Below are positions 17,694 through 61,816 of a DNA stretch of 64,000 nucleotides, one piece after another (position 1 is the stretch's first letter; every line of letters begins with the position of its first letter). A model generated the notes under the pieces. The model had not been told where the DNA came from and did no database searches. It was given only the letters and a program-made list of their open reading frames with translations. Source of the DNA: Bacteroidota bacterium (GTDB taxonomy: Bacteria; Bacteroidota; Bacteroidia; Chitinophagales; Saprospiraceae); contig JAIUPL010000017.1 in NCBI GenBank assembly GCA_020160935.1, forward strand, positions 1 to 64,000, read 5' to 3'. Made by a program: the position numbers and the translations under genes.

Positions 17694-17940
17694 GAGGTGA
17701 GAGGTGAGAGGTGAGAAGTGAGAGGTGAGAGATGGGAGCCCTGAAAGGGCGTTTTCAATAGCACTGGGCAACGCCCTGTGTATTCGTATTGATAATTAAT
17801 GCAGATCGATATCCAAATTCCATCGTCTCATTATTCCTTTCAAATGCTACAATACAGTCCATAAAAAAAGGCGCAGCGTACCATCGTGTACGCTACGCCT
17901 CTCTCACCTCTCACTTCTCACCTCTCACTTCTCACTTCTC
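17694..17940. repeat. Facing GAGGTGA / TCACCTC tandem repeats before gapA's stop
   Basis: Units of gaggtga and gagaagt run from 17694 to about 17735, and their complement runs from 17901 to 17940, ending at gapA's stop codon. The two arrays can pair around a 165-base centre. That centre itself holds an 8-bp stem (17746-17753 with 17770-17777) and the gapA terminator (17861-17900). Read on gapA's strand, the stop codon TAG is followed at once by agaagtgag units. Confidence 0.8.
17861..17900 (-). terminator. Rho-independent terminator of gapA
   Basis: On the minus strand aggcgtagcgtac (17900-17888) pairs with gtacgctgcgcct (17881-17869) with one mismatch. It is followed by a run of T (A-run 17863-17868 on the plus strand). 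It lies 40 bases after the gapA stop, beyond the tandem repeat array. Confidence 0.8.
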
Positions 17941-18932
17941 TATACCATCGCTGCCAGTTGCGCCAAACGAGCCGAGTAGCCGGCTTCGTTGTCGTACCAG
18001 CCCACGATACGGCAGGTATTGCCGTTCACCTGGGTCAGCGGAGCGTCGAAAATGCAGGAGTGTGTATTGCGAACGATATCGCTCGAAACGATTTCGTCGG
18101 TGTTGTATTCCAGGATACCTTTCAGGTTGCTGGCAGCAGCGGCTTCGAATGCGGCATTGATTTCCTCTACAGAAGCGGCTTTTTTGATGGTAGCCACCAC
18201 GTCGGTAACGGAGCCGGTAGCCACCGGAACACGCAGAGAGTGTGCTGCGATTTTGCCTTTCAGGTGTGGCGCCACCAGTACCACTGCTTTAGCAGCGCCG
18301 GTGCTGGTAGGCACGATGTTCTGAGCAGCTGCGCGCGCACGACGCAGGTCGCGGTGCGGGCCGTCCTGCAGGTTCTGGTCGGCAGTATAAGCGTGGATGG
18401 TGTTCATAAAGAACTGCTCAACGCCAAATGCTTTGTCCAGCGTCATGATCATCGGCACCAGGCAGTTGGTCGTGCAGGAAGCATTGGAAATGATCAGATC
18501 GGTATCTTTGATCTGGTCTTCGTTGGCGCCAATGACAAACGTAGGCACGTCGTCGGCTTTTGGAGGAGCAGAAAGAACGACGCGTTTGGCGCCAGCCTGC
18601 AAGTGCAGGCCTGCTTTTTCCTTGTCGAGGAAAATACCCGTGCATTCGAGTACTACATCGACGCCCATATCTTTCCAGGGCAGTTCAGCAGGGTTTTTTA
18701 CAGCCAGACCGGCAATTTTATTGCCATTTACGGTGATGCTGTTATCGTCGGCGCTAACAGTGCCTTCAAAACGACCGTGCATGGTATCGTATTTCAGCAG
18801 GTGGGCCAGCGTTTGGTTGTCTGTGAGGTCGTTGATGGCGACCACTTCCACATTGGGGTTTTTGACAAGGTTGCGGAAGGTCAGGCGACCAATCCGGCCA
18901 AAGCCATTGATGGCAATGCGTTTTTTAGCCAT
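17940..18932 (-). CDS. gapA: Glyceraldehyde-3-phosphate dehydrogenase, 330 aa
   Basis: Class I GAPDH, catalysing the reversible NAD+-dependent oxidation of glyceraldehyde-3-phosphate to 1,3-bisphosphoglycerate in cytosolic glycolysis/gluconeogenesis. The Rossmann motif INGFGRIGRL is at residues 8-17, and Asp35 after the second strand favours NAD+. The catalytic Cys is C153 in NASCTTNCL. The C-terminus has the usual WYDNEAGYS. I chose the ATG at 18932 (MAKKRIAING), which gives the family length; an in-frame extension to 18980 would run over the -7 promoter box. The gene stands alone, with its own promoter box at 18978-18985 and terminator at 17861-17900. Confidence 0.97.
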   Translation of the reverse strand: MAKKRIAINGFGRIGRLTFRNLVKNPNVEVVAINDLTDNQTLAHLLKYDTMHGRFEGTVSADDNSITVNGNKIAGLAVKNPAELPWKDMGVDVVLECTGIFLDKEKAGLHLQAGAKRVVLSAPPKADDVPTFVIGANEDQIKDTDLIISNASCTTNCLVPMIMTLDKAFGVEQFFMNTIHAYTADQNLQDGPHRDLRRARAAAQNIVPTSTGAAKAVVLVAPHLKGKIAAHSLRVPVATGSVTDVVATIKKAASVEEINAAFEAAAASNLKGILEYNTDEIVSSDIVRNTHSCIFDAPLTQVNGNTCRIVGWYDNEAGYSARLAQLAAMV

Positions 18933-18977
18933 TGTTATCTTGAGTATTTTGTTTACGGAATGTGTTTCGTTGCGGCG

Positions 18978-18985
18978 CAAAAGTA
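18978..18985 (-). promoter_or_regulatory. -7 promoter box of gapA
   Basis: On the minus strand the sequence is TACTTTTG followed by CGCCGC, a perfect match to the Bacteroidota consensus TAnnTTTG. It ends about 45 bases before the gapA start codon. I see no good TTG at the usual -33 spacing. Confidence 0.6.
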
Positions 18986-19051
18986 AGGTATTGAAACCAC
19001 TTTAACGCTTAATCTCAAAGGTTTCCACCACTTTTCACGGTATAAATCTGA

Positions 19052-20290: not shown

Positions 20291-20430
20291 CCTGCTTCAG
20301 AGGGTTCCTTTAAAGCAGGTACACGCTACGCTTTGTGTCCCTTGTGCAAACCTTTGTGTCCCTTGTGGTAAAATAATTTAAACACGAGATCACGAAGGTT
20401 TTCACAAAGGGCACAAAGCGTAGCGCGTAC
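20291..20430. repeat. Compound inverted repeat between two minus-strand genes
   Basis: Arms 20319-20346 and 20403-20430 match at 25 of 28 positions (core cgctacgctttgtg). Inside them 20348-20358 pairs with 20391-20401 (10 of 11). A separate 7-bp stem, cctgctt/aagcagg, lies at 20291-20297 and 20313-20319. The unit ctttgtgtcccttgtg also occurs twice in direct orientation (20331 and 20353). The rest of the 323-base gap (20153-20475) holds only the upstream gene's promoter box. Confidence 0.85.
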
Positions 20431-30016: not shown

Positions 30017-30040
30017 ATTTTATCTCCATTTTTTATTTCT

Positions 30041-30082
30041 CTCACTCTCTCACCCTCTCACCCTCTCACCCTCTCACCCTCT
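30041..30082. repeat. TCTCACCC tandem array at nuoM's stop codon
   Basis: About five copies of an 8-base unit ctcaccct run up to nuoM's stop. On nuoM's strand the sequence is TTTTAG (with the stop TAG) followed by agggtgagagggtgagag. No complementary arm lies nearby, so this is the one-sided form of the repeat. Confidence 0.8.
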
Positions 30083-31577: not shown

Positions 31578-31610
31578 CTTCTCGCTTCTCACCTCTCACC
31601 TCTCACCTCT
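31578..31610. repeat. CTCACCT tandem array at nuoL's stop codon
   Basis: About four 7-base units (ctcacct/ctcgctt) end at nuoL's stop. On the coding strand the stop TAG is followed by aggtgagaggtgagaggtg. It is one-sided; no complementary arm is evident before nuoM. Confidence 0.8.
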
Positions 31611-33495: not shown

Positions 33496-33508
33496 AATTC
33501 TTTGAATT

Positions 33509-33895
<387 letters not shown>

Positions 33896-33918
33896 CGTAT
33901 CAAATGAATGATGAATGA

Positions 33919-34419
33919 TTACAACTTAAGGTCGCGTTTTCCCACCAGCACTGCTCCCACCATGGCAGCGAGGAACAGGATACCGGCAATTTCAAAAGGC
34001 ACAACGAAATCGGTGAACAATACTTGGCCCAGATTTTCTACCAAACCCACCCCGGGGTTTTCTGCTTCTGGTATCTGGAGTGCAATACTGCCGCGCATGG
34101 CGCCTACCAGCGTTACCAGCAAGGAACCCGCGGCGATGGCGCCACTTATTTTCCACAGCGCCGATTTCTGCGGTTCCGTGTCCCTGCTCAGGTTGAGTAG
34201 CATGAGTACAAACAGGAACAGCACCATGATGGCGCCTGCATATACGATGATGTGTACCACCGCCAGAAACTGCGCATTGAGCAGAATGTACTGCCCGGCA
34301 ATGGTAAAAAATGTGAGAATCAGGAACAGGACACTGTGCACCGGGTTGCGGGAAAGCACCACGAGCAATGCCATGATAATGGAAATGATGGCGAGTGTCA
34401 AAAAGATGTAGAGTGTCAT
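33919..34419 (-). CDS. nuoJ: NADH-quinone oxidoreductase subunit J, 166 aa
   Basis: Five-helix membrane subunit of complex I, recognised by NPVHSVLFLILTFF and AQFLAVVHIIVYAGAIMVLF and by its place before nuoK. The VYAGAIMVLFLFVLML segment corresponds to the pi-bulge helix that moves during turnover. In many genomes nuoI directly precedes it; here a Ca2+/Na+ exchanger gene lies between. Confidence 0.96.
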   Translation of the reverse strand: MTLYIFLTLAIISIIMALLVVLSRNPVHSVLFLILTFFTIAGQYILLNAQFLAVVHIIVYAGAIMVLFLFVLMLLNLSRDTEPQKSALWKISGAIAAGSLLVTLVGAMRGSIALQIPEAENPGVGLVENLGQVLFTDFVVPFEIAGILFLAAMVGAVLVGKRDLKL

Positions 34420-41515: not shown

Positions 41516-41532
41516 AACCTGTTTTAGTTATA

Positions 41533-41677
41533 AGTTGTGAGAATGAGTTATGAGTTATGAGTTATGAGTTATGAGTTTTACTCACTTTGCTTTTGGTTAC
41601 TCTGTAGAAGAAGCCAAAAGCAAAGTGAGTAAAACTCATAACTCATAACTCACAACTCATAACTCATTCTCATAACT
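41533..41677. repeat. 64-bp-arm inverted repeat between the DUF2750 gene and nuoF
   Basis: Arms 41533-41596 and 41614-41677 are complementary at 62 of 64 positions, around a 17-base loop. The inner 24 bp (41573-41596 with 41614-41637; core actcactttgcttttgg) is unique sequence, and the outer part is a tandem TTATGAG array. The DUF2750 gene's stop codon (41670-41672) lies inside the right arm, and nuoF starts 18 bases beyond the left arm. It is the longest near-perfect hairpin in the window. Confidence 0.95.
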
Positions 41678-42074
41678 CGCCTTTTTCTTTGTCAAATTCC
41701 GTTTGAAAATCTTCTTTCAGTCTTTGGGGTGTCATCACGGCACTCTGGAAATCCGGCGTAGGAAATACCGCCACTTTCATTTTCTCTTTTTCAAAATCAT
41801 CCAGCCAGTCTACAAACTCGTATAAATCCAGAGATTCCACAGTAAATTCTTCAAATTCGCCTTGGGTTCGGAATATTTCGGCAAATTCCGGGTTCGGAAA
41901 AACTGCTAGCACTTCCGTATCATCGTCGTCATCTTCCAGCAACAACCAGCCTTCTTCGTCGGAAAGTCCCCACACCTCTTCCTCTTCACACACGGTTTTG
42001 ATGAAGTAGTTGTAGCGTTTTTCCGGCTTCTTGGCCAGAATTTCTTCCACCTGTTTTTGAGATAGTTGTGCCAT
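41670..42074 (-). CDS. DUF2750-family protein, 134 aa
   Basis: Matches the DUF2750 pattern: KRYNYFIKTVCEEEEVWGLS, a DEEGWLLLEDD strand, an Asp/Glu-rich loop (DDDDDTE), VFPNPEFAEIF and a second VFPTPDFQSAV. It is soluble, strongly acidic and of unknown function. The ATG at 42074 (MAQLSQKQ) is chosen over a frame reaching 42098, because it gives the family start. The last codons and the TGA stop (GAG TTA TGA) are themselves units of the TTATGAG inverted repeat. With the SH3 lipoprotein it sits between nuoE and nuoF, where no accessory gene is normally expected. Confidence 0.82.
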   Translation of the reverse strand: MAQLSQKQVEEILAKKPEKRYNYFIKTVCEEEEVWGLSDEEGWLLLEDDDDDTEVLAVFPNPEFAEIFRTQGEFEEFTVESLDLYEFVDWLDDFEKEKMKVAVFPTPDFQSAVMTPQRLKEDFQTEFDKEKGEL

Positions 42075-42093
42075 ATTTTTTTGTTTTTTTATT

Positions 42094-42159
42094 CTCACCC
42101 TCTCACCCTCTCACCCTCTCACCCTCTCACCCTCTCACCCTCTCACCCTCTCACCCTCT
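42094..42159. repeat. Eight-copy CTCACCCT tandem array
   Basis: An 8-base unit (tctcaccc) is repeated about eight times with no interruption between the DUF2750 gene start and the SH3-lipoprotein stop. On the coding strand the stop TAA at 42164-42162 is followed by at, then agagggtgagagggtgag. It is one-sided, with no complementary arm. Confidence 0.9.
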
Positions 42160-46280: not shown

Positions 46281-46310
46281 AATTCAGTTTTTAATGATGA
46301 AAGGTGAGTA

Positions 46311-46440
46311 GTGAGTGGTGAGTAGTGAGTGGTGAGTAGTGAGTAGTGAGTAGTGAGTGGTGAATTTTTCATAAGATTTTTAAAAATTCACTATTCACTA
46401 TTCACTATTCACTATTCACTACTCACTATTCACTACTCAC
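46311..46440. repeat. 59-bp-arm inverted repeat between nuoA and nuoB
   Basis: Arms 46311-46369 and 46382-46440 are built from GTGAGTAGTGAGTGG units and CACTATTC units. They face each other over all 59 positions: 51 Watson-Crick pairs and 8 G/T pairs, with a 12-base loop. The nuoA stop codon (46437-46439) is in the right arm. On the nuo transcript the eight G/T positions become C/A mismatches; on a plus-strand RNA they would be G-U pairs. Confidence 0.93.
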
Positions 46441-46799
46441 TTATCCCACTCAAACGCGCCTTTGCGCAGCACGTAGTAAAACCCGATCAGGAATACGGCT
46501 ACGAACATCAGCACGGCAAAAAAGCCGTCGAAACCCATGGCCCTGAAATTCACGGCGTAGGGATAAAAAAAGATGACTTCCACATCGAAAAGCACAAACA
46601 GGATGGCCGTCATCAAATATTTGATGGAAACCGGCATCCGGGCATTGCCTTGGGATTCGATACCACATTCAAAATTTTCATTCTTTTTGGCGTTTTTACG
46701 GCGAGGGCCCAGCATTGGAACAAAAATAAGTACCAATGCCACAAACCCCAGCGCCACAAGCGCCTGCATGATAATGGGAAAATATCCGGATGGTTCCAT
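46437..46799 (-). CDS. nuoA: NADH-quinone oxidoreductase subunit A, 120 aa
   Basis: First gene of the complex I locus: a three-helix membrane subunit. The start at 46799 (MEPSGYFPIIMQALVALGF) is chosen because the frame up to 46913 would overlap the promoter box and adds non-family sequence. Conserved NFECGIESQGNARMPVSIKY, then LFDVEVIFFYPYAV. The stop codon TGA is part of the tandem repeat. The -7 box lies at 46890-46897. Confidence 0.96.
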   Translation of the reverse strand: MEPSGYFPIIMQALVALGFVALVLIFVPMLGPRRKNAKKNENFECGIESQGNARMPVSIKYLMTAILFVLFDVEVIFFYPYAVNFRAMGFDGFFAVLMFVAVFLIGFYYVLRKGAFEWDK

Positions 46800-47785: not shown

Positions 47786-47790
47786 ATGTG

Positions 47791-47959
47791 TGTTTTTGTG
47801 TTTTGGTGTTTTTGTGTTTTTGTGGTGCGTTGCTTTTGGTAATTGTGGTAATTCAGGCCTTTAAATCATAGATGCCGGGCGCGAAGCCCCTCCAAAACAC
47901 AAAAACACCAAAACACAAAAACACCAAAACACCAAAACACAAAAACACAAAAACACCAA
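47791..47959. repeat. Inverted GTGTTTTT / AAAAACAC arrays before gnd
   Basis: A perfect 30-bp inverted repeat links 47791-47820 with 47894-47923. The right-hand array continues with more aaaacacc units to 47959, 23 bases before gnd's ATG. The left array starts 5 bases after the CBM9 lipoprotein's stop codon. An open frame reading this array into gnd would encode a Lys/Thr/Pro repeat and is not taken as coding. Confidence 0.92.
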
Positions 47960-48916: not shown

Positions 48917-50245
48917 TTGATCCTGTTACTTCTCAGTATTGCCCTTCTGCTGGCGCTGATCATTTTTGTTCGACTCAATGCTTTTATGGCATTGATAATC
49001 AGCACGTTGTTTGTAGGAGTATTCAAAGGAATGTCGCCTGTTGACTTGATCAAATCAATACAGAACGGCATTGGCAGCACGCTGGGAGGCCTCGTGATGG
49101 TATTGGCCTGCGGCGTTATTTTGGGCAGCGTGCTGGCGGAAACAGGCGCTGCGCAGGTAATTGCCCAGCGTTTGTTGCGCGTTTTCGGGCCTTCACGTGC
49201 CAATCTGGCTATCCTCAGCACCGGATTTGTGGTGGGCATCGCCATGTTTTACAATGCAGGATTTATGGTGCTGGCGCCGCTGGTTTTTACGGTCAATGCC
49301 GTTTCCGGACAGCCGCTGGTGCCGCTGGCTATTTCGATGGCAGCACCGTTGTCGGTCACACATGGTTTTTTGCCGCCTCACCCGGGGGCAACGGCAGTGG
49401 CCAATCTTTTTGGCGCCGACATGGGCCGAACGCTGTTATTCGGACTGGCGCTGGCCATCCCTTCTATTTTAGTGGCGGGCCTCTTTTTCCCTTCCTTTTT
49501 AAAAAAAATACCGGCAAAACCGCCTGCAGGTCTGTTTCAGGTCAAAGAATTTGCACCAGAATCACTGCCCGGCTTTCCAAAAAGTCTGCTGGTGGCGCTG
49601 ACGCCCGTGGTGCTAATGGCATTTTCCACGGTAATGGAACTGAATTACCCGGATGCAGATCAAACATTTCCCTGGCTTGCTTATGCAGGCGATCCCGGAA
49701 TAGCCATGCTGATTTCTGTGTGCCTGGCATTGCTCCTGTTGAGCAAAAACCCTTTGTCGCCCAATCCTAATTTCATGACGGCGAGCGACCTGCTCGATCG
49801 CTCCGCTACTGCTATGGGCGCCGGTGCGTCGCTGATGCTGGTAGTGGCTGCCGGAGGCGCTTTCAAGCAGGTGTTGGTAGACAGTGGTATTGGCAAGGAA
49901 TTGGCTGCACAACTGACCGATGCGCCTGTGTCGCCACTGGTGTTGGGCTGGAGTATTGCCACGCTGCTGCGTATTGCCGTTGGTTCGGCCACGGTAGCGG
50001 GTATGACAGCAGCAGGCATTGTTCAGCCCTTGGTTGCTGCTGGGGGCGTTTCACCTGAATTGATGACACTGGTAGTGGGCGCTGGCAGTCTCATGTGTTC
50101 GCATGTCAATGACACTGGATTCTGGATGTTCAAGGAATGGTTTGGTTTGAGTCTGCGGGATACATTTCGATCCTGGACGCTCATGGAAACGATTATCGGT
50201 GTAATGGGCCTTCTCGGCGCCCTTTTCCTCGACCTACTCTTCTAA
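48917..50245 (+). CDS. gntP: Gluconate:H+ symporter (GntP family), 442 aa
   Basis: Inner-membrane permease with about 12-14 helices, importing gluconate or a related sugar acid. Family features: GLVMVLACGVILGSVLAETG, FYNAGFMVLAPLVF, APLSVTHGFLPPHPGATAVA and the final HVNDTGFWMFKEWFGLS. There is no ATG near the N-terminus; the frame opens with TTG at 48917 (TTG ATC CTG), which I take as the start. The nearest in-frame ATG is well inside the first helices. It lies between gnd and gntK, which fixes gluconate as the likely substrate. Confidence 0.95.
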   Translation: MILLLLSIALLLALIIFVRLNAFMALIISTLFVGVFKGMSPVDLIKSIQNGIGSTLGGLVMVLACGVILGSVLAETGAAQVIAQRLLRVFGPSRANLAILSTGFVVGIAMFYNAGFMVLAPLVFTVNAVSGQPLVPLAISMAAPLSVTHGFLPPHPGATAVANLFGADMGRTLLFGLALAIPSILVAGLFFPSFLKKIPAKPPAGLFQVKEFAPESLPGFPKSLLVALTPVVLMAFSTVMELNYPDADQTFPWLAYAGDPGIAMLISVCLALLLLSKNPLSPNPNFMTASDLLDRSATAMGAGASLMLVVAAGGAFKQVLVDSGIGKELAAQLTDAPVSPLVLGWSIATLLRIAVGSATVAGMTAAGIVQPLVAAGGVSPELMTLVVGAGSLMCSHVNDTGFWMFKEWFGLSLRDTFRSWTLMETIIGVMGLLGALFLDLLF

Positions 50246-50246
50246 C

Positions 50247-50274
50247 TCACCACTCACTACTCACCACTCACTAC
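50247..50274. repeat. CTCACCA/CTCACTA tandem array between gntP and gntK
   Basis: Four 7-base units (ctcacca, ctcacta) follow the gntP stop codon by one base and end 7 bases before gntK's ATG. Unlike the other stop-anchored arrays, the C/A-rich strand is the coding strand here. There is no G/T-rich partner arm within this gap. Confidence 0.8.
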
Positions 50275-50281
50275 GCGCACC

Positions 50282-52716: not shown

Positions 52717-52756
52717 AAAAAAACGAGCGACACAGCCTTTCGCTATGCCGCCCGTT
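52717..52756 (-). terminator. Rho-independent terminator of the coiled-coil protein gene
   Basis: On the minus strand aacgggcggca (52756-52746) pairs with tgtcgctcgtt (52732-52722), with two G-U pairs. The stem is followed by a run of T (A-run 52717-52721 on the plus strand). It is positioned for the leftward gene ending at 52839; in the folD direction it lacks a T-run. Confidence 0.75.
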
Positions 52757-52804
52757 AGAATATTGCAAACAGGGTGTTCCTTCCTTATTTATTTGACAGT
52801 CTCG

Positions 52805-52839
52805 GATGACTGTCGACTGATGACTGTCGACTGTCGACT
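52805..52839. repeat. GACTGTCGACT direct repeats at a stop codon
   Basis: The 14-base unit gatgactgtcgact occurs at 52805-52818 and 52819-52832, followed by a partial copy (gtcgact). The array abuts the stop of the coiled-coil protein gene. Each unit contains the palindrome gtcgac. Confidence 0.75.
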
Positions 52840-53864: not shown

Positions 53865-54303
53865 AATTATTGAAGAAAATGTGTGAAAGGTTTAACGAAA
53901 AGTGTTGCGAATTCAGGTGGTTTTAAGAGGGACAGTGTTTTGGTGTTTGTGTGTTTTAGTGTTTTTGGATGTTTGCAGATAAAACCGTTTTCGGGTCGGT
54001 TTATTGCATTTCGTTTATTGTGATTTTTTTTAAATTTTTTTTCAAAATATCATAAGTTGCTGATTATCAACAATGAAAATTTTTAAATAATATTTTACCC
54101 CTGAAATTTCCAGCGAAAACCTGTATCCGGAAATGGAGGGTGAATACCTATCTTTGTGTCAGGGTTTTCACCGAGGTTTGTGGGGATTTCCCTGAGTGCC
54201 ATGTAATATCGATCCGGCGCCAGATGCTGCTTTTTTGCAAAAGGTGCGCAAAGGTCGACCGATTTTCAGAAAACAACACACCTTCACATTAAAAAAAACG
54301 GGT
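53865..54303. other. 439-base divergent intergenic region
   Basis: It lies between the leftward coiled-coil gene and the rightward exonuclease gene. A one-sided G/T-rich tract (gtgttttggtgtttgtgtg and relatives) occupies about 53934-53976. The region around 54000-54090 is strongly AT-rich. TATCTTTG at 54149-54156 fits TAnnTTTG and may be the -7 box for the exonuclease gene, with a long 5' leader of about 140 bases. An open frame from 54196 joins the exonuclease but its translation is not family-like. Confidence 0.45.
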
Positions 54304-55065
54304 ATGTCAGCATTTGATACCTATGATTTGTACAATATTTTGTTTCTGGACATTGAAACAGTGCCAGGTTATGCCGAATTTGACGAACTGAGCGACGAGT
54401 TGCAGGAACTTTGGGGCATCAAATGCCATAACCTCTTGCGAAAAGCCCCTGGTGAGGAAGTGGAATATGAGGAAATGGCAGAATTGTTTCGCCAGCGCGC
54501 GGGCATCTATGCCGAATTTGCCAAAATCGTTTGTGTGTCAGTCGGTTTTCTGACACGCCAGCCCGGTAATGAACTGCCATTGCTGCGCCTCAAATCATTT
54601 AGCAACCACCTGGAAGCAAGCCTGCTCGAAGATTTCAGCGAGATGTTGACGAAGCATTTCAACAATCCCGACAAGTTTGCCCTCTGCGGCCATAATATAA
54701 AGGAGTTCGATATTCCGTATATCTGCCGGCGTATGCTGATCAATCAGTTGCCCTTGCCCAGGATGCTCGACATCGCCGGCAAAAAGCCCTGGGAAACCAA
54801 ACACCTGCTTGATACCCTCGAGATGTGGAAGTTTGGCGACATCAAGAACTATACGTCGCTGCGCCTGCTCACAGCCGTATTCGACATCCCATCTCCCAAA
54901 GACGATATTTCGGGCGCCGATGTGGCGACGGTGTACTGGGAAGACCGCGACCTGGATCGCATCGCCACGTATTGCGAAAAGGATGTGCTGGCTACCGCAC
55001 AATTGTTTCTGCGTATGAAAAGACTGCCCTTGCTGAATCAGAACCAGGTAGTGGTGGTTCGGTAA
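54304..55065 (+). CDS. Predicted 3'-5' exonuclease (PolB-exonuclease-like), 253 aa
   Basis: The start at 54304 (MSAFDTYDLYNILFLDIETV) gives the family N-terminus. Exonuclease motifs are complete: I, FLDIETV (Asp-x-Glu); II, LCGHNIKEFDIPYICRRM; III, YCEKDVLATAQLFLRM (Tyr-x3-Asp). This matches the stand-alone relatives of the DNA polymerase B exonuclease domain (PF10108 type), which trim DNA or RNA 3' ends with two metal ions. The biological substrate is unknown. rpe follows after 32 bases, and both may share a transcript. Confidence 0.9.
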   Translation: MSAFDTYDLYNILFLDIETVPGYAEFDELSDELQELWGIKCHNLLRKAPGEEVEYEEMAELFRQRAGIYAEFAKIVCVSVGFLTRQPGNELPLLRLKSFSNHLEASLLEDFSEMLTKHFNNPDKFALCGHNIKEFDIPYICRRMLINQLPLPRMLDIAGKKPWETKHLLDTLEMWKFGDIKNYTSLRLLTAVFDIPSPKDDISGADVATVYWEDRDLDRIATYCEKDVLATAQLFLRMKRLPLLNQNQVVVVR

Positions 55066-55097
55066 GGAATAAAAAATTCCCGATATTTGCGGCCACT

Positions 55098-55769
55098 ATG
55101 AAAAAGCATTTGCTGGCACCTTCGCTCCTGGCCGCCAATTTTGCGCGTCTGGCCGATGAAATCGACCTTGTAAACCGCAGTGAGGCCGACTGGTTTCACT
55201 GCGATGTGATGGACGGTCGATTCGTTCCCAATATCACTTTCGGATTTTTTATTCTGGAAGCCATCAAACGACTGGCTACCAAACCGCTCGATGTACACCT
55301 GATGATTGTGGAGCCGGAAAAATATGTGGAAGATTTTCGCAAGGCCGGCGCCGATGTCATTACCGTACATGCCGAAGCATGCCCACATCTGCATCGCACT
55401 ATTCATCAGATCAAGGAATGTGGCGCACAGGCAGGTGTGGCACTTAATCCGCATACGCCCGTAAGCATTCTTGAAAATGTGATCGAACACATTGATCTGG
55501 TGTGCGTTATGTCGGTGAATCCGGGTTTCGGCGGACAAAAGTTCATTTACAATACCTTGCCAAAAACGCGGCAACTCAAGGAAATGATCATTTCCAGCAA
55601 TAGCCCTGCTCTCATTGAAATTGATGGCGGGGTGGGCCTCCACAACGCTGAATCGTTGCTTCAAGCCGGCGCCGACGTGCTGGTGGCTGGCAGCAGCGTA
55701 TTTGGCGCCAAAGACCCCGAGGCAACGATACGTGACTTGAAAGCGTTTGAAGCGAAGTTTGATTATTAG
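55098..55769 (+). CDS. rpe: Ribulose-phosphate 3-epimerase, 223 aa
   Basis: Interconverts ribulose-5-phosphate and xylulose-5-phosphate in the pentose phosphate pathway. TIM-barrel motifs: APSLLAANFARL, WFHCDVMDGRFVPNITFG (metal and catalytic Asp), LDVHLMIVEP, VALNPHTP, MSVNPGFGGQKF and the second catalytic Asp in IEIDGGV. The ATG at 55098 is chosen. GATATTTGCGG at 55082-55092 is close to the -7 consensus (one mismatch). The enzyme uses the product of gnd encoded 6 kb upstream. Its TAG stop is followed at once by a GGTTGAT tandem array and a nested hairpin. Confidence 0.97.
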   Translation: MKKHLLAPSLLAANFARLADEIDLVNRSEADWFHCDVMDGRFVPNITFGFFILEAIKRLATKPLDVHLMIVEPEKYVEDFRKAGADVITVHAEACPHLHRTIHQIKECGAQAGVALNPHTPVSILENVIEHIDLVCVMSVNPGFGGQKFIYNTLPKTRQLKEMIISSNSPALIEIDGGVGLHNAESLLQAGADVLVAGSSVFGAKDPEATIRDLKAFEAKFDY

Positions 55770-56032
55770 GGTTGATGAGGGTTGAAGAGGATGATAGGGT
55801 TGATGAAGGTTGATATTCAACGGCTCGGGTATGAATATTTTTGGTAACTATACCCATTTGCACCTAAACCTATAAGGTTTATAAAACCTTATAGGTTTTT
55901 GTACCCTTTTTTACAGCCTGTGTGTAAATGGGTATAGTTACCATATTTTTTACTTCACCGAGCCGTTGAATATCAACCCTCATCAACCCTATCAACCTCA
56001 TCAACCCTATCAACCCTATCAACCTCATCCAC
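55770..56032. repeat. Three-tier nested inverted repeat between rpe and the LptF/G gene
   Basis: Innermost perfect stem of 15 bp: 55866-55880 with 55884-55898 (aaacctataaggttt). Middle perfect stem of 17 bp: 55843-55859 with 55926-55942 (ggtaactatacccattt). Outer perfect stem of 21 bp: 55808-55828 with 55958-55978. Beyond this, GGTTGAT/GGATGAT tandem units (55770-55807) face ATCAACC units (55979-56028). The structure fills the entire gap, from the rpe stop to the next start codon. Confidence 0.95.
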
Positions 56033-56033
56033 C

Positions 56034-57596
56034 TTGAAAAAAATAGATAAACTATTATTCACCAGTTTTATCGGCCCCTTCGCGGTGTCGTTCTTTATCG
56101 CATTGTTCGTGCTGATCATGCAGTTCTTATGGCTGTATATTGACGATATTGCCGGTAAAGGGGTGAGTATTTTTATCATGTTGGAATTGATCGGGTATTT
56201 GTCGGTGTCTACATTTCCGATGGCCTTGCCAATTGCCGTGTTGATTGCTTCTGTGATGGTGATGGGGAATCTGGCAGAACGATACGAACTGTCGAGTATG
56301 AAATCGGCCGGGGTTCCATTGATTCGTATTATGCGTTCGCTGATTTTTTGTGCAGCCTGCATCGGACTGTTTTCCTATATCTGCTCGGATTTTATCATAC
56401 CCATTTCCAACCTGGAGTTTAAATCCCGTTTGTACGATATACGCCGACAAAAACCGGCGCTGACACTTGAAAAAGGCGTGTTCAACGAAGATTTTCGCCA
56501 GTTTGTGATCAAAATCGGCAGCAAGGAAGAAGATGGAGAGACCATAGGCGACGTGCTGATTGAAGATCAAACGAACATCGGGCAGGTGAAATTCAACCAG
56601 ATTCTGGCCGATAGCGGACAGATGTACACCACGAAGGACAAACGTTTTTTTGTGATGAACCTGTTTCATGGCACGCAGTATCAGGAGCCGGGCAACCAGG
56701 GGCCGCAGGTGCAAAAGCAGAAATTCCCGTTCATCCGCACCAATTTTTCTTCGCTGACAAAAGTGTGGGATATGCGGGAGTTTGAAATGGTCAGCACTGA
56801 TAAAGACCGATTCAGCCAACAGCGCTCCATGCTGAGTATGAATCAGTTGCGTGCCAATATGGACTCCCTGCAACGATCGATGCAAACCACCCGGCAGGCA
56901 TTTGCCGACGATTTGATGGTGCCGCTGAAGCGCCAGCCTGTCAAACCCGTCCCGATTGCACCACCGCCTCCGGCGCCCAAACCCGGGAAAAAAATAAAGT
57001 TTGGAGCGGCGCCTCCCCCTGCGCCGCCGGTTCCACAGCACCGCCCGGGCTTCGATCGACTCCCTAAACAGGATTTGAACAAACCGCTGAATCAATACCC
57101 TAACTTTGCAGAAGTGTTCCGCGCATCCGATCGACCTGGCATATTGAAAGAAGCGGCTGCACGTATTAAAACAAGCCAGAATCAACTGGAAACACGCAAC
57201 AATCAGGTAGATGCACGGCGGAAGGAATACGTCAAAACGGGCTACGAACTGTACACCAAATACAGTTTTGCATTCGTCTGCTTTGTGTTTTTGTTCATTG
57301 GCGCGCCAATGGGGGCCATTATCCGGAAAGGTGGCTTCGGCTACCCGATTCTTGTTTCCATCATCTTTTTTGTGATCTTCATTGTGTTGACCATCGTTTG
57401 CAAAAAACTGGCGGAGTCGTACATCCTCACGCCCTTCTGGGCGGCTATGGTGCCTTGTATCGTGCTGATTCCGGTAGGTTTTTACCTGACGCGGAAAGCC
57501 ATGAACGACTCGCAACTGTTTAGTACCGATCGCATCGACCGCCTTGTAAATATGCTTCGCGAACGCCTCGAACAACAAAAAGTCAAAACGGCATGA
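56034..57596 (+). CDS. LptF/LptG-family lipopolysaccharide transport permease, 520 aa
   Basis: Membrane component of the Lpt ABC exporter that moves lipopolysaccharide from inner to outer membrane. Three N-terminal helices (FIGPFAVSFFIALFVLIMQF, LPIAVLIASVMVMGN, SLIFCAACIGLFSYI), a periplasmic jellyroll and three C-terminal helices (FVCFVFLFIGAPMGAIIRKG onwards) follow the YjgP/YjgQ pattern. It has a long insert of about 170 residues with a Pro-rich core (PVPIAPPPPAPKPGKK, then APPPAPPVPQH), making it longer than the usual ~360-residue enzyme. No ATG is available; the frame opens with TTG at 56034. It overlaps the PAP2 gene by 4 bases. Confidence 0.9.
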   Translation: MKKIDKLLFTSFIGPFAVSFFIALFVLIMQFLWLYIDDIAGKGVSIFIMLELIGYLSVSTFPMALPIAVLIASVMVMGNLAERYELSSMKSAGVPLIRIMRSLIFCAACIGLFSYICSDFIIPISNLEFKSRLYDIRRQKPALTLEKGVFNEDFRQFVIKIGSKEEDGETIGDVLIEDQTNIGQVKFNQILADSGQMYTTKDKRFFVMNLFHGTQYQEPGNQGPQVQKQKFPFIRTNFSSLTKVWDMREFEMVSTDKDRFSQQRSMLSMNQLRANMDSLQRSMQTTRQAFADDLMVPLKRQPVKPVPIAPPPPAPKPGKKIKFGAAPPPAPPVPQHRPGFDRLPKQDLNKPLNQYPNFAEVFRASDRPGILKEAAARIKTSQNQLETRNNQVDARRKEYVKTGYELYTKYSFAFVCFVFLFIGAPMGAIIRKGGFGYPILVSIIFFVIFIVLTIVCKKLAESYILTPFWAAMVPCIVLIPVGFYLTRKAMNDSQLFSTDRIDRLVNMLRERLEQQKVKTA

Positions 57597-58276
57597 AGGG
57601 CATTTGGGAAAACAGGTGGTTTGCGGTTCCAGTGGTTATTTTTCTGCTTTCCTGTGCGCTGTTGCTCTGGGTGGTGCCTTATGGCGATGAAATCCTGTTT
57701 TTCAACAACTGGAGAAAAGAGCCGTACAATACGATTTTCCGCATTTTTACCATGTTGGGGGAAGGCTTTGTATATGGCGCGCTAATTCTGGCCGCATTTC
57801 GCTGGCGTTACCGCTTTTCCCTGTTGATTGCACTGTCGGGCATGCTTATTTTGCCAGTCGGATATGTTTTGAAAGACCAGATCGGTGTATTTCGCCCTAA
57901 AACTTTCTTTGAGCAAAAAGGCGTGTACAATCAGGTAGTGGTGGTGCCGGAAGTGGAACTCAACAGCGGACGCACCAGTTTTCCGTCGGGCCACACGATG
58001 TCGGCGTTTGCCTTGTACAGTATGCTGACGCTCATTATGGGTCGCAGATACGAGCGCTGGGGATTGTTGACGGCCACGCTGGCTATTGGTGTGGCGGTGT
58101 CGCGCGTTTTTCTGGTGCAGCATTTTTTGGCCGATATTCTGGCTGGCGCGATTGCAGGCCTGGTTTGCGCCCAGTTTTTATGGTGGCTGAACGGGACGCA
58201 TTTTTTTCAGCGCATGACAGTGCTGGACAAAGGTTTGGGCAAGCCACACAAGAAAAATACGGACGTCAGCCCATAG
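57593..58276 (+). CDS. PAP2-family phosphatase, 227 aa
   Basis: A six-helix membrane phosphatase with all three active-site motifs: KDQIGVFRP (KX6RP), PSGHTMS (PSGH) and SRVFLVQHFLADI (SRX5HX3D). The His residues form and break the phospho-enzyme. Typical substrates are undecaprenyl pyrophosphate, lipid A phosphates or phosphatidic acid; the coupling with the Lpt permease (ATGA overlap) favours an envelope lipid. Its stop overlaps the convergent miaA stop by 11 bases. Confidence 0.93.
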   Translation: MKGIWENRWFAVPVVIFLLSCALLLWVVPYGDEILFFNNWRKEPYNTIFRIFTMLGEGFVYGALILAAFRWRYRFSLLIALSGMLILPVGYVLKDQIGVFRPKTFFEQKGVYNQVVVVPEVELNSGRTSFPSGHTMSAFALYSMLTLIMGRRYERWGLLTATLAIGVAVSRVFLVQHFLADILAGAIAGLVCAQFLWWLNGTHFFQRMTVLDKGLGKPHKKNTDVSP

Positions 58277-59180
58277 TTTTTTCCAGAAAAGACACTATTT
58301 CAGCCCAGTCGCCCGGGTGAAATGCCTGCCAGTTTCCGTGTTTCCTGAACCAGGTAGCCTGCCTTTTGGCGTAGTTGCGCGAATGCTGCTTGATTTTATC
58401 TACCGCCTCCCTGTAACTGCATTTTCCATCAAAATAATCAAAAAATTCCTCGTAACCCACTGTCCGTAAAGCAGTTACGTGGCGAAATGGCAAAAGCCTG
58501 CGCACTTCCTCTTCCAGCCCTGCAGCCAGCATGTCGTCTACGCGGGCTTCAATACGCGCGTATAATTCAGGTCTTGGCACATCGAGCAGCAAGTAGATGG
58601 GGGTAAAAGATCGTTGCTGTTTTCCTTTGCCCAAAAACGCGGAGTAGGGCAGTCCGGATGCGTAATATACTTCCAGTGCTCGCCGCAGCCGGGCAGGGTT
58701 TTGCCGATCAACGACTGCAAAATAGGCCGGGTCGATGCTTTGGATTTCACTTTGCAACCATTCCAGCCCGTTTTGCAGAAAGGCATCCGACACCTGTTTT
58801 TTTATCTCCGTTGTCACTTCCGGGAAATCGTCCAGTCCTTCACAAACTGCCTGAAGGAACAGCCCGGAACCGCCAACCAGAATGGCCACATCTTTTTCCT
58901 GATAAATCCGTTGCAAGGTATCGAGTGCCGCCCGTTCGAAGTCGCCGACGCTGAATTCCTCCGTCACCGAGAGGCTGTCGATGAAATGATGGGGCGCCTG
59001 CGCAAGTTCCGTAGGCGTTGGTTTGGCTGTGCCAATGCTCATTTCCCGGTAAAACTGCCGGGAGTCGGCGGAAAGAATTTCTGTATGGAAATGTTGCGCC
59101 AGGCGAATAGCCAGCGCCGTTTTGCCTGTAGCCGTTGCGCCGCCGATTACGAGCAGGTATTTGGTGCCCTCTTTTTTCAT
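58266..59180 (-). CDS. miaA: tRNA dimethylallyltransferase, 304 aa
   Basis: Adds a dimethylallyl group to A37 of tRNAs reading UNN codons. P-loop GGATATGKTALAIRL, the conserved LSADSRQFYREMSIGTAKPT, HHFIDSLSVTEEFSVGDF, ILVGGSGLFLQAV and RQNPARLRRALEVYYASG are present, ending with RNYAKRQATWFRKH. The ATG at 59180 (MKKEGTKYLLVIGG) is chosen; the frame open to 59390 is antisense to the acyltransferase gene and not family-like. It diverges from the acyltransferase gene, with 62 bases between starts. Confidence 0.96.
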   Translation of the reverse strand: MKKEGTKYLLVIGGATATGKTALAIRLAQHFHTEILSADSRQFYREMSIGTAKPTPTELAQAPHHFIDSLSVTEEFSVGDFERAALDTLQRIYQEKDVAILVGGSGLFLQAVCEGLDDFPEVTTEIKKQVSDAFLQNGLEWLQSEIQSIDPAYFAVVDRQNPARLRRALEVYYASGLPYSAFLGKGKQQRSFTPIYLLLDVPRPELYARIEARVDDMLAAGLEEEVRRLLPFRHVTALRTVGYEEFFDYFDGKCSYREAVDKIKQHSRNYAKRQATWFRKHGNWQAFHPGDWAEIVSFLEKTMG

Positions 59181-59242
59181 CGGCGCGAAGAAAACGAAGG
59201 AATTCCTTACTTGCTCTATTCGAACGAAACTATTTTCGCGCC

Positions 59243-60541
59243 ATGAAATACGTGAATGCCTACAAAAGCGACGGCTTATTGTACCTGATGATGGAGCCGT
59301 TCCTGCATCTTGCCTATTGGTGTCTGTTTCGAAAAGTGTATCTGCACAATGTTTCAGGTGTGCCTGCCAACAAACCCGTGTTGATTGCATCCAATCACCC
59401 TACGGCATTTGTCGACCCGATTGCCCTGTGCATTTACCTCGACGGGCCGGTGTACAACATGACACGTGGCGACGTTTTTCAAAAACCCTGGGCGCGTTTT
59501 CTGCTCGAACAGGTGAATATGTTCCCGGTATTTCGCATCCGCGACGGCTACACAGGCCGCGAGCGCAACGACGGTGTCATTGAGTTTTGTCAGGGTAAAA
59601 TGCTTAAAAATCAGACTGTTGCAATTTATGTGGAGGGCGAACACCACCTCGACAAACACGTCAAACCGGCGCAAAAAGGCCTGGCACGCATCGCTTTTGA
59701 AACCTATAAAAACCATCAACTCAAGGACTTGCAAGTGGTGCCTGCCGGCTCGAACTACATTTGGGGTGACCGCACCCGCGACGAACTCAAACTGCTGATC
59801 GGCGAACCCATTTACATTCGCGACTACTGGGAAATGTATGAAAACAACCCGGCCACAGCCATCAACCAGTTGAATGCGCGGATCGATAAAGCGCTCCGCG
59901 AATTGTGTTATCATGTAGAAGACCCTGCTGATTTTGAACTGGCCGAACAGGTGCTGACGCTCGTGCGCAATAATTTTAAAGGTCGTCTATTTCCGGTGGT
60001 AGAGGCTGGCAACCTGCTTTTTCAGGTGGAACATGCTGCACTGGAGCGCCTCAATGCACTTCCCGCTGCCGAGAAAGACATACTTCGACAAAAAGCAACT
60101 GCATATTTTTCAGCACTGGACCGTGCCGGGCTTAGCGATGCCGGACTTCATCGGCCTGAATACGCTCATATTTCGTGGATGTTGTTTCTGATCCTGGCAG
60201 CCATTCCCGCTGCTGCAGGGTATGTGTTGTCCTGGCCTGTGCGTTACCTCTCGCGCAGCCTTACTGCCAAAGTGGTGAAAAAACCGGAATTTGTTACCAG
60301 CGTACTGATGGGCGCCGCTACCGTACCGGGTGTAATCGCCTGGATCGTGCTGTTGTTGACGGGACTGTTGCTGCACCTGTCGTGGATGGTGGCATTGGTG
60401 ATTCTGGCGCCGATTCTGGGTTGGTTTGCCTTTTTTTACCGCGATTGTTGGTGGCGTTACCAGGCTTCCCGCAAAGCCGCCGTGCATCCGGAGCGCAGCA
60501 GTTTGCTGGAAATGCGGGCGTCTCTTCAGGGGAGTTTGTGA
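59243..60541 (+). CDS. PlsC-like acyltransferase with C-terminal membrane segments, 432 aa
   Basis: The start at 59243 gives MKYVNAYKSDGLLYLMMEPF. The N-terminal ~250 residues are a glycerolphosphate-type acyltransferase domain: SNHPTAFVDP (HX4D catalytic motif), FPVFRIRDGYTG and YVEGEHHLDK. A helical linker follows. Then come three or four hydrophobic segments (from about residue 315: SWMLFLILAAIPAAAGYVLS, GVIAWIVLLLTGLLLHLSWM, VALVILAPILGWFAFFY). It is probably involved in membrane phospholipid or related lipid synthesis. TATTTTCG at 59231-59238 is a near-consensus -7 box. Confidence 0.88.
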   Translation: MKYVNAYKSDGLLYLMMEPFLHLAYWCLFRKVYLHNVSGVPANKPVLIASNHPTAFVDPIALCIYLDGPVYNMTRGDVFQKPWARFLLEQVNMFPVFRIRDGYTGRERNDGVIEFCQGKMLKNQTVAIYVEGEHHLDKHVKPAQKGLARIAFETYKNHQLKDLQVVPAGSNYIWGDRTRDELKLLIGEPIYIRDYWEMYENNPATAINQLNARIDKALRELCYHVEDPADFELAEQVLTLVRNNFKGRLFPVVEAGNLLFQVEHAALERLNALPAAEKDILRQKATAYFSALDRAGLSDAGLHRPEYAHISWMLFLILAAIPAAAGYVLSWPVRYLSRSLTAKVVKKPEFVTSVLMGAATVPGVIAWIVLLLTGLLLHLSWMVALVILAPILGWFAFFYRDCWWRYQASRKAAVHPERSSLLEMRASLQGSL

Positions 60542-60560
60542 TAAAATCAGTAGCCAGACG

Positions 60561-60590
60561 TTGCCGACTGCCGTGGAGTGCCTACTTTTG
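60561..60590 (+). promoter_or_regulatory. Promoter of fabH (-33 TTG, -7 TACTTTTG)
   Basis: TTG at 60561-60563, a 19-base spacer and TACTTTTG at 60583-60590 followed by CGG make the best Bacteroidota-type promoter in the window. It is 67 bases before the fabH ATG and starts only 20 bases after the acyltransferase stop. Confidence 0.75.
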
Positions 60591-60657
60591 CGGTCCAATC
60601 CGGAATGATATAAAAATCACCGCTGGATAACCTTTTTCAAATTAACACAACAATTCC

Positions 60658-61647
60658 ATGGGAAAAGTACGCGCAGCCATCACTGGCGTTCATGGTTGGG
60701 TACCGGAAGACCGGCTTACCAATTTCGACCTTGAAAAAATGGTAGATACGAATGATGAATGGATCGTATCACGCACGGGTATTCGCGAACGCCGCATCCT
60801 CCGCACGCCGGGCTGGGCCACCAGCGATATGTGTGCAGAAGCCGTGAAAGGACTGCTTGACAAAACCGGTGTAAAACCGGGTGAAATCGATATGATTATC
60901 GTGGCCACGGTGACCGCCGATATGGTATTTCCGGATACGGCCAATACTGTGTGCGACAAAGTTGGTGCAAAAAATGCGTTTGGTTATGACATCAACGCGG
61001 CCTGCTCCGGTTTTTTATATGCACTTTCTACAGGCGCTCAATTCATACAATGTGAAACCTACAACAAAGTCATCGTTGTCGGCGCCGATATGATGTCGTC
61101 GATTGTCGACTACACTGACCGCAATACCTGCGTAATTTTCGGCGACGGCGCCGGAGCGGTGCTGCTCGAGCCCCGGAAAGATGGCAATGGTATCCAGGAT
61201 TTTGTGCTGCGTGGCGACGGTTCCGGCCGCAGCCTGCTTCAAATGAAGGCCGGCGGCTCTTTGCATCCGCCTACCGCCGAAACGGTGGCCAATCGCGAGC
61301 ACTACGCCTGGCAGGATGGCAAACGCGTTTTTGTACACGCTGTAAAAGGTATGACCAGTACCGTGGAAGATATTTTGCGCCGCAATAAAATGACTACCGA
61401 CGATGTGACCTGGGTAGTGCCACACCAGGCCAATATGCGTATCATCACCTCCGTAGCAGAACACCTGCACTTCCCGATGGAAAAAGTGATGGTCAATATC
61501 GAAAAATACGGGAATACGACGGCGGCTACTTTGCCGCTCTGCCTCTGGGAATACGAATCCAGGTTGCACAAGGGCGATAATATCGTCCTGACAGCATTTG
61601 GCGGCGGATTTACCTGGGGGGCGTTGTATTTGAAGTGGGCTTATTAG
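60658..61647 (+). CDS. fabH: 3-oxoacyl-ACP synthase III, 329 aa
   Basis: Starts fatty-acid synthesis by condensing an acyl-CoA with malonyl-ACP. The Cys-His-Asn triad is C116 (DINAACSGFLYAL), H256 (VVPHQANMRI) and N286 (YGNTTAATLP). N-terminal DEWIVSRTGIRERR and C-terminal GGGFTWGALYLKW complete the family pattern. Full length. It has its own promoter (60561-60590). The TAG stop is immediately followed by agggtgagagggtgag and a 45-bp perfect hairpin. Confidence 0.96.
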   Translation: MGKVRAAITGVHGWVPEDRLTNFDLEKMVDTNDEWIVSRTGIRERRILRTPGWATSDMCAEAVKGLLDKTGVKPGEIDMIIVATVTADMVFPDTANTVCDKVGAKNAFGYDINAACSGFLYALSTGAQFIQCETYNKVIVVGADMMSSIVDYTDRNTCVIFGDGAGAVLLEPRKDGNGIQDFVLRGDGSGRSLLQMKAGGSLHPPTAETVANREHYAWQDGKRVFVHAVKGMTSTVEDILRRNKMTTDDVTWVVPHQANMRIITSVAEHLHFPMEKVMVNIEKYGNTTAATLPLCLWEYESRLHKGDNIVLTAFGGGFTWGALYLKWAY

Positions 61648-61816
61648 AGGGTGAGAGGGTGAGAGATGTGAGAGCGTGAGAGATGTGAGAGGGTGAGAGT
61701 TCGTAGATTGTACCGCTTCGTTATTGGACAACTCAATAGCGAAGCGGTACAATCTACGAACTCTCACCCTCTCACATCTCTCACATCTCTCACGCTCTCA
61801 CTTCTCTCACCCTCTT
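61647..61816. repeat. 45-bp perfect inverted repeat between fabH and ccmE
   Basis: Arms 61676-61720 and 61740-61784 are complementary at all 45 positions, around a 19-base loop. The inner part (ttcgtagattgtaccgcttc) is unique; the outer part is GAGGGTGAGAG units. Further partly matching tandem units extend to 61647 on the left and 61816 on the right. The block joins two convergent genes and includes both stops: fabH's at the left edge and the CcmE TGA (61807-61809) in the right array. Confidence 0.95.

What the first reader, a model, noticed from the sequence alone, without database searches (positions are those of the whole stretch)
17694..61816. Stop-codon-anchored G/T-rich tandem repeats that form intergenic hairpins
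At least twelve genes (gapA, nuoM, nuoL, nuoK, nuoA, DUF2750, SH3 lipoprotein, CBM9 lipoprotein, rpe, fabH, ccmE, ABC permease) are followed, at or within a few bases of their stop codon, by a short tandem repeat. On the sense strand it is always G/T- or G/A-rich. Units vary by locus (GAGGGTGA, AGGTGAG, TTATGAG, GTGAGTA, GATGAAT, GGTTGAT, TTTTGTG). In seven gaps the complementary array follows further on, often just before the next start codon, closing a long hairpin. The architecture is shared while the sequence differs, which argues against copies of one mobile element. It suggests either a local generating mechanism (template switching or slippage at gene ends) or a selected RNA function such as intercistronic processing, stability or termination.
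Basis: seen in the sequence. Interest (0 to 1): 0.85.

Follow-up and report, generated by a model that had tools for sequence, protein, structure and literature searches.

The report
Stop-codon hairpins with tandem-repeat arms
In this bacterium the gaps after many genes are filled by DNA hairpins whose arms are stacks of 7-10 letter repeats; they belong to several scattered repeat families, and different families sit at the same spot in related species, so the place is kept while the sequence is not.

Summary
In 864 kb of the host genome (15%; a Saprospiraceae-type bacterium), only 4 of 188 arrays of 7-10 nt units lie inside called genes. Of 173 assigned to gaps, 84 lie within 6 nt of, or overlap, a stop codon (13 expected by random placement), and the G-rich strand usually reads away from the gene. 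The interpretation needs changing. The arrays are arms of about nine dispersed families of palindromic repeats; at least five families have recurring cores between the arms. In the nearest relative held (88% identical nuoL DNA), 41 of 146 syntenic gaps carry an element in both genomes (18 expected); by eye at least eleven hold different families. Selection for sense-RNA structure is not supported: sense and antisense fold equally well, and T runs after hairpins are at background. The placement rule has precedents: G-rich heptamers in Xanthomonas and Nostoc (PMC4692102), TAACTGA arrays (PMC4679880), E. coli REPs near stops (PMC12306157). I rate it a new variant of a known kind: foldback-like palindromes with tandem arms, concentrated between convergent genes. 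A side role as bidirectional transcript ends is possible but unproven.

The parts
17693..17940 (.). GTGAGAG-family hairpin between the giant ORF (3676-17547,+) and gapA (17940-18932,-): arms 17693-17731 (145 nt after the giant ORF) and 17901-17940; right arm overlaps the gapA stop
30039..30082 (-). single G-sense array (GAGGGTGA) from the nuoM stop TAG
   Evidence: the same stop carries AGAGGTG units in G043
31587..31610 (-). single G-sense array (AGGTGAG) from the nuoL stop TAG
33503..33576 (.). GATGAAT hairpin between nuoK stop and nuoL start; 10-nt loop, inverted relative to G043
33904..33919 (-). short GATGAAT-type array (G-free in sense) in the nuoJ-nuoK gap; a longer array in G043, a hairpin in G016
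41526..41678 (.). ATGAGTT hairpin with core ACTCACTTTGCTTTTGG.. after the DUF2750 stop; GATGAAT hairpin at the same place in G043
42093..42159 (-). single GAGGGTGA array filling most of the gap after the SH3-like lipoprotein stop
46304..46441 (.). GTGAGTA hairpin after the nuoA stop; GATGAAT hairpin in G043, short ATGAGTT-like hairpins in G007/G009/G022 by reading, none in G021
47789..47959 (.). GTGTTTTT hairpin after the CBM9 protein stop, core GTGCGTTGCTTTTGG..
50245..50274 (+). single C-sense array (ACTCACC) filling most of the gap between a GntP permease stop and the next start: exception to the sense-strand rule
52805..52839 (-). GTCGACAGTC-type array flush with the stop of 52839-53864 (-); GACTCAG-like units at the same stop in G043
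55768..56033 (.). GTTGATGAGG hairpin after rpe; core ATTCAACGGCTCGG..CCGAGCCGTTGAAT, loop carries an inserted MITE-like palindrome
61646..61815 (.). GAGAGGGTG hairpin reaching both the fabH and the ccmE stops; core TTCGTAGATTGTACCGC..GCGGTACAATCTACGAA
63171..63210 (-). short degenerate G-sense array after the ABC permease stop; GTGAGTA-type array at this stop in G043

Best explanation
The arrays are the arms of several families of dispersed, non-coding palindromic DNA elements. Each is built as a G-rich tandem array of 7-10 nt units, a stretch between the arms (45-75 nt in 37 of 61) that is a recurring, partly palindromic core in at least five families, and the complementary C-rich array. They act at DNA level. 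Shown: families recur across the genome, positions persist between species while families change, hairpins nest inside hairpins, arms differ in unit number, and a loop can be inverted. Inferred: copies spread between gaps by an unidentified process (transposition or ectopic copying between like arrays). New copies enter the apex of existing hairpins, and the outer arms are later lost by repeat-mediated deletion, which swaps the family and keeps the place. Also inferred: position and polarity are filtered by what gene ends tolerate. The G strand supplies stop codons behind a gene, the C strand offers few start codons in front of one, and convergent gaps contain no promoter to break. Use as a bidirectional transcript end between convergent genes is a possible by-product.
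For: Unit-linked recurrent cores (automatic clustering joins 27 of 59 loops); core halves match their own partner best in 14 of 34, 5 expected. 5' arm G>C in 54 of 61 hairpins, divergent gaps included (8 of 10), so polarity belongs to the element, not to the transcript. Element in both species in 41 of 146 syntenic gaps, 18 expected, and in 17 of 21 convergent ones; by eye at least eleven gaps hold different families, e.g. C51:66029, where an AAGTCCT and a GTTATTG hairpin have almost the same two boundaries. Hairpins inside hairpin loops at C21:112059, C21:126869 and C51:192504 (own) and at the gaps C51:178797 and C21:156552 in G043. A clean empty site at C21:123216, own gap 228 nt against 17 nt in G043. 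Hairpins of 16 bp or more in 55 of 99 convergent, 77 of 372 tandem and 17 of 105 divergent gaps; in four same-genus genomes with fewer arrays (G022, G007, G009, G021) 4 of 27, 16 of 202 and 2 of 29. G strand has stops in all three frames in 118 of 168 arrays (53% for shuffled units) and none in 19 (43% for shuffled).
Against: No mobilising enzyme or autonomous copy was found: only 2 candidate inverted array pairs 300-6000 nt apart in 864 kb, with no shared gene, and Y1 transposase counts do not track array density. 13 of 18 convergent two-array hairpins lie within 10 nt of, or overlap, both stops, tighter than tolerance alone easily gives; only 14 of 67 array-free convergent gaps are 12 nt or less. 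Arms are only weakly closer to their own partner than to other copies: best in 10 of 51, 8 expected; above the mean in 37. The translation filter is only half borne out: the C strand too has stops more often than shuffled units (117 of 168 with none, 84% for shuffled), and its lack of start codons (149 of 168 with none) is no better than shuffled units (95%). Families are not independent data points there. GTTGATGAGG core halves do not match their own partner better than others (best in 1 of 7). The swap by nesting is a reading of static examples.
Confidence: 0.57

Rival explanations
1. Selected 3'-end function: the hairpins are kept because they end or insulate transcripts (bidirectionally between convergent genes) or protect mRNA 3' ends; only the structure matters, so any family will do.
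For: 20 of 21 syntenic convergent gaps carry an element in the own genome, 17 in both; 55 of 99 convergent gaps have hairpins; position conserved while family changes; flush with stops. The fabH-ccmE hairpin is followed by a T run on the + strand, and one terminator-like site lies in the 52805-52839 array.
Against: No sense-strand bias in stability or G-U pairs in 33 tandem-gap hairpins. T runs follow 19 of 122 hairpin ends, 15.6%, against 12.9% at random positions of array-free gaps. 51 of 112 gaps with arrays have a single array. Arrays lie between genes of the nuo cluster that are probably co-transcribed.
Confidence: 0.26
2. Local generation: slippage and template switching at gene ends make each array and its inverted partner in place.
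For: Loop inversion at nuoL-nuoK and unit-number differences; mirrored private variant in both arms at C51:182444 in G043; core halves match their own partner best in 14 of 34; a gene end already resembling a unit at C21:123216.
Against: Family-specific cores recur at distant loci, and hairpins match at or near full length in many places of G043 and G006 and some of G009.
Confidence: 0.1
3. Stop-codon-directed insertion: a process that inserts hairpin DNA specifically at stop codons.
For: Sharp window from about -25 to +10 around stops; protein C-termini unchanged or nearly so at most compared stops; two families with near-identical boundaries at C51:66029.
Against: Divergent gaps also carry hairpins (17 of 105); most convergent hairpins touch both stops, which one targeted insertion does not explain; no target duplication seen beyond an ambiguous CAAA at one empty site.
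Confidence: 0.12
4. G-quadruplex elements like those proposed for Xanthomonas and Nostoc.
For: Same placement rule (PMC4692102); some units (GAGGGTGA) have GGG runs.
Against: Only 77 of 168 arrays contain GGG; the ATGAGTT, GATGAAT and GTGAGTA consensus units have none.
Confidence: 0.03

Closest known systems
G-rich heptamer repeats of Xanthomonas (GGGAATC) and Nostoc (GGGGA(C/T)T), PMC4692102 (passages and sections 13 and 15 read)
   Same: Heptamers, intergenic, G strand close to the ORF on its 5' side, on the sense strand after stops (some overlapping the stop) and antisense before starts; in Xanthomonas often paired as inverted repeats (70 cases reported in Xcc, 75 in Xac).
   Different: One unit type per organism there, studied for G-quadruplexes; here about nine superfamilies of 7-10 nt, many without GGG, with cores and family switching in place.
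TAACTGA direct repeats of Beggiatoaceae, Cyanobacteria and some Bacteroidetes, PMC4679880 (outline, abstract and sections 3, 10, 24 read)
   Same: Intergenic heptamer arrays hugging gene boundaries; the reverse complement, GTTATCA in rotation, occurs within GTTATTG-type arrays seen here and in relatives.
   Different: One unit, mostly upstream of starts in the main genome studied; in the sections read, not described as hairpins flush with stops.
REP palindromes near stop codons (E. coli), PMC12306157 (search listing and passages read; Liang 2015 known only as cited there)
   Same: Dispersed extragenic palindromes, part of them within 15 nt of stops.
   Different: Short palindromes; the word 'tandem' occurs 0 times in that text. 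Here the arms are 7-10 nt arrays.
MITEs and foldback elements (Tm1 PMC3169594, Galileo PMC3573991: search listing only)
   Same: Dispersed, long terminal inverted repeats with internal repetition.
   Different: Eukaryotic examples with a known transposase class; none identified here.
Cyanobacterial STRR heptamers (recalled; search listings)
   Same: Tandem heptamers in intergenic DNA.
   Different: Not compared in sequence here.

Membership tests
G-rich heptamer class of PMC4692102 | G-rich strand nearest to the ORF on its 5' side | tested here: met
   134 of 168 arrays; single arrays 35 of 48
G-rich heptamer class of PMC4692102 | G-quadruplex potential (GGG in the unit) | tested here: not met
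   77 of 168 arrays have GGG
REP / RAYT system | GTAG or CGTC tag beside a short palindrome | tested here: inconclusive
   by reading, GTAG stands at the outer end of 13 of 14 GTGAGAG and AGTCCTG cores but is not a regular feature of the ATGAGTT, GTTGATGAGG and GTTTTGG cores; CGTC not searched
REP / RAYT system | associated Y1 transposase | tested here: inconclusive
   2 matches in the own genome, 4 in G021, which has no array in 80 kb: copy number does not track arrays
MITE / foldback element | terminal inverted repeats, dispersed copies | tested here: met
   61 two-array gaps, recurrent cores
MITE / foldback element | target-site duplication | tested here: inconclusive
   one clean empty site, ambiguous CAAA
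MITE / foldback element | autonomous partner with transposase | tested here: inconclusive
   none in the 864 kb searched, 15% of the genome
Intrinsic terminator | stem followed by a T (U) tract | tested here: not met
   T runs after 19 of 122 hairpin ends against 12.9% at control positions. The pattern scan of 44000-62500 takes loops of 3-8 only, and none of the 61 two-array hairpins has 8 or fewer bases between its arrays, so it could not list most; it lists one site inside the 52805-52839 array
Rfam family | covariance model match | tested here: not met
   0 matches at gathering threshold over the window
TAACTGA arrays | array a few nt upstream of a start codon | tested here: inconclusive
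   in other Bacteroidota loci 14 of 24 listed arrays lie 0-9 nt before a start; in the own genome 15 of 173 are within 6 nt of a start, 8.3 expected, while stops dominate

The most novel reading that the evidence does not exclude
Gene 3' ends in this genus are an occupied niche for a set of competing hairpin families: a DNA process seats tandem-armed palindromes exactly at stop codons (stop to stop between convergent genes) and exchanges one family for another through the hairpin apex. The same outward G-strand rule in Xanthomonas, Nostoc and here would mean one general mechanism or filter makes heptamer arrays at gene boundaries across phyla.
Probability: 0.17. Interest if true: 0.85.

Novelty: new variant of a known kind. 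Interest (0 to 1): 0.6.

Why it matters
Heptamer arrays have been noticed in several bacterial phyla, and why they exist and why their G-rich strand points away from genes is not settled in the papers I saw. This genus offers a natural experiment: a dense, fast-turning set of families beside same-genus relatives that have fewer. Strain comparison, 3'-end mapping and hairpin removal can separate selfish spread, insertion targeting and terminator use.

Tried and rejected
Rejected: G-quadruplexes as the common property. A sense-RNA-selected hairpin, by fold asymmetry, and the classical terminator, by T runs. Rfam families (0 matches). Phage or plasmid origin: one hairpin searched in phages, another in plasmids, no match. 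Y1 transposase copy number as driver. An autonomous copy carrying a gene between like arms. Truncation of proteins by arrays as the source of the stop anchoring: C-termini are mostly unchanged against orthologues, though 25 of 89 stop-adjacent arrays begin before the stop codon.

Led nowhere: measuring the pre-element length of convergent gaps in relatives with fewer arrays, because the matches to the one 20 kb stretch tried were scattered. Literature on Saprospiraceae repeats and on bacterial foldback elements gave nothing specific in the listings. That I found no paper describing this system rests only, in an open-licence library.

Limits: gene calls are from a home-made hexamer caller, so start positions are rough and some short genes are missed. 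The sample is 864 kb of 5.84 Mb, including 4203 N. 11 of 188 arrays were neither inside a called gene nor assigned to a gap. Several loci of G006 and G016 (and one each of G010 and G022) were chosen because they hold arrays, so densities, and in part the counts for G006, G016 and G022, are biased upward; so are those for G043, some of whose contigs were picked from element matches. Unit superfamilies and the count of eleven family switches were assigned by eye; one of the eleven (C35:26645) has the 38-nt CAAGGCACGCC repeat, not a heptamer family, on the own side. The 146 syntenic gaps come from 173 of 635 own genes that could be placed in the fetched part of G043; gaps over 1500 nt, own gaps under 6 nt and pairs with changed orientation or contig were dropped, and gaps over about 500 nt were not printed. 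In one search, gaps over 1500 nt were dropped. In one search, 5 of 173 arrays with equal G and C were dropped. In one search, 2 of 61 loops were outside 15-250 nt and left out.
Full report
Check of the observation. TRF and direct reading confirm tandem arrays of 7-10 nt at the coordinates given, most beginning at or inside the stop codon, and seven window gaps with both arms. The window lies in a 5.84 Mb, 51-contig genome whose closest nuoL relatives in named records are mostly MAGs titled Saprospiraceae.

Genome sample. I took 800 kb more of this genome and called genes. TRF gives 188 arrays with periods 7 (101), 8 (58), 9 (11) and 10 (18), none at 5, 6, 11 or 12 within the 5-12 range counted; 4 of 188 lie inside called genes. 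Of 173 assigned to gaps, 84 lie within 6 nt of, or overlap, a stop against 13.3 by random placement (maximum 23 of 1000), and 15 within 6 nt of a start against 8.3 (maximum 17), which is not exceptional. Of contacts within 15 nt of a stop, the sense strand is G>C in 75 of 90; of those within 15 nt of a start, 21 of 22 are not G>C. Both statements say one thing: the G-rich strand reads outward from the ORF. Measured directly, the ORF on the 5' side of the G-rich strand is the nearer one for 134 of 168 arrays, and for 35 of 48 single arrays. Read by sense alone, single arrays in tandem gaps split 15 G to 14 C, so much of the sense-strand rule is hairpin geometry.

What the arrays are. In 61 gaps with two arrays the sequence between them is, for at least five unit families, a recurring core: for example TTCGTAGAGTGTACCGC.. 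with GAGAGGGTG arms, ATTCAGCCGCTCGG.. with GTTGATGAGG arms, GTAGAGTACACCTGA.. with AGTCCTG arms, GGCTTCGCGCTTGGCATTTGA.. with GTTTTGG arms, ACTCACTTTGCTATTGG.. or TGCTGTACTC.. with ATGAGTT arms. Automatic clustering with a strict score joined 27 of 59 loops into eight clusters and left 32 single; the rest of the grouping is by eye. Nine superfamilies, also by eye, account for 173 of the 188 arrays. Core halves are complementary to their own partner more than to other copies (best in 14 of 34, 5 expected), though not in the GTTGATGAGG set (1 of 7), while the repetitive arms show this only weakly. Copies of the same families occur widely in G006, G016, G043 and G009. So these are dispersed palindromic elements, not private products of each locus.

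Comparison with relatives. At orthologous stops of nuo and other genes the protein end is mostly unchanged while the array differs: at nuoA the own genome has GTGAGTA, G006 and G016 GATGAAT, G010 GATGAAC, G007, G009 and G022 ATGAGTT-like short hairpins, G021 none. In G043 (88% nuoL DNA identity, the nearest of the 42 genomes) 146 syntenic gaps were compared: 97 without TRF arrays in either, 13 sharing a unit, 15 with different units (several only variants of one superfamily), 11 own only, 10 sister only. Counting arrays or hairpins of 16 bp or more, 41 are occupied in both, 18 expected; 17 of 21 convergent gaps are occupied in both. By eye at least eleven gaps carry different families in the two genomes: C35:26645, C35:41516, C35:46281, C21:109186, C21:117752, C21:126869, C21:176004, C51:66029, C51:178797, C51:188607 and C51:192504. 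Possible intermediate states exist: hairpins with another family's hairpin in the loop. The loop of the nuoL-nuoK hairpin is inverted between the two species. One gap is cleanly empty in the sister (C21:123216).

Position. Hairpins of 16 bp or more occupy 55 of 99 convergent, 77 of 372 tandem and 17 of 105 divergent gaps; G043 22 of 39, 29 of 146 and 10 of 41; G016 9 of 9, 11 of 41 and 2 of 6; G006 7 of 12, 16 of 54 and 1 of 9. In four same-genus genomes with fewer arrays (G022, G007, G009, G021) the pooled figures are 4 of 27, 16 of 202 and 2 of 29. In 13 of 18 convergent two-array gaps both stops lie within 10 nt of, or inside, the hairpin, whereas only 14 of 67 array-free convergent gaps are 12 nt or shorter. 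One of two comparison repeats is not stop-flush; the other, with three places, is in two of them.

Function. If the sense RNA hairpin were selected, G-U pairs and stability should favour the sense strand in tandem gaps; they do not (13 better, 14 worse of 33; 75 against 106 G-U pairs). T runs after the hairpins are at background (19 of 122 against 12.9%). The polarity is the same in divergent gaps (8 of 10), so it is a property of the element. The G strand carries stop codons in all frames more often than shuffled units (118 of 168 against 53%), but the C strand is also somewhat richer in stops than shuffled units, and its lack of start codons (149 of 168) is no better than shuffled (95%), so the compatibility filter is a hypothesis with partial support. 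I favour dispersed DNA elements filtered by gene-end compatibility, with transcript-end use possible but unproven.

Known relatives. The placement rule and inverted pairing were described for heptamers in Xanthomonas and Nostoc (PMC4692102: passages, sections 13 and 15), TAACTGA arrays for Beggiatoaceae, Cyanobacteria and five Bacteroidetes (PMC4679880: outline, abstract, sections 3, 10, 24), and stop-proximal REPs for E. coli (PMC12306157: passages). In loci of other Bacteroidota, heptamer arrays lie 0-9 nt before start codons in 14 of 24 listed cases; 13 of these 14 have fewer G than C in sense by my reading, and 12 of 14 show no 12-mer of their reverse complement nearby. New here, as far as the cited searches go: the number of families in one genome, the cores, and the exchange of families at fixed places.

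Noticed in passing
window 20319-20430: Another dispersed palindrome family (TTTGTGTCCCTTGTG type), 10 places in the 864 kb sample and more hits in the genome; not flush with stops; absent at this gap in G043.
   Followed up: partly
window 26652-26806: 38-nt tandem repeat with CAAGGCACGCCTTGTCTC palindromes filling a convergent gap; G043 has a GTTATTG hairpin there.
   Followed up: partly
window 55826-55940 (approximate): MITE-like palindrome (ends GGTAACTATACCC) with a possible ATATTTTT duplication, inserted in the loop of the rpe hairpin; absent in G043.
   Followed up: partly
window 36038-36861, 38892-39966, 44518-45151: Extra small ORFs between otherwise syntenic genes, with no match in the fetched G043 contig; by look possibly toxin-antitoxin pairs, not scanned.
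   Followed up: no
window 3676-17547: Single ORF of 4623 aa, partly conserved in G043 (67% over its last 600 aa).
   Followed up: no
L089, L093, L104, L150 (other Bacteroidota): AAATCTT-type heptamer arrays 4-6 nt before start codons at seven places in four loci.
   Followed up: partly
G043 at the gaps orthologous to own C21:109186 and C21:176004: A further hairpin family with degenerate GGATTTAA-type arms that TRF misses, reaching close to the stops on both sides.
   Followed up: partly
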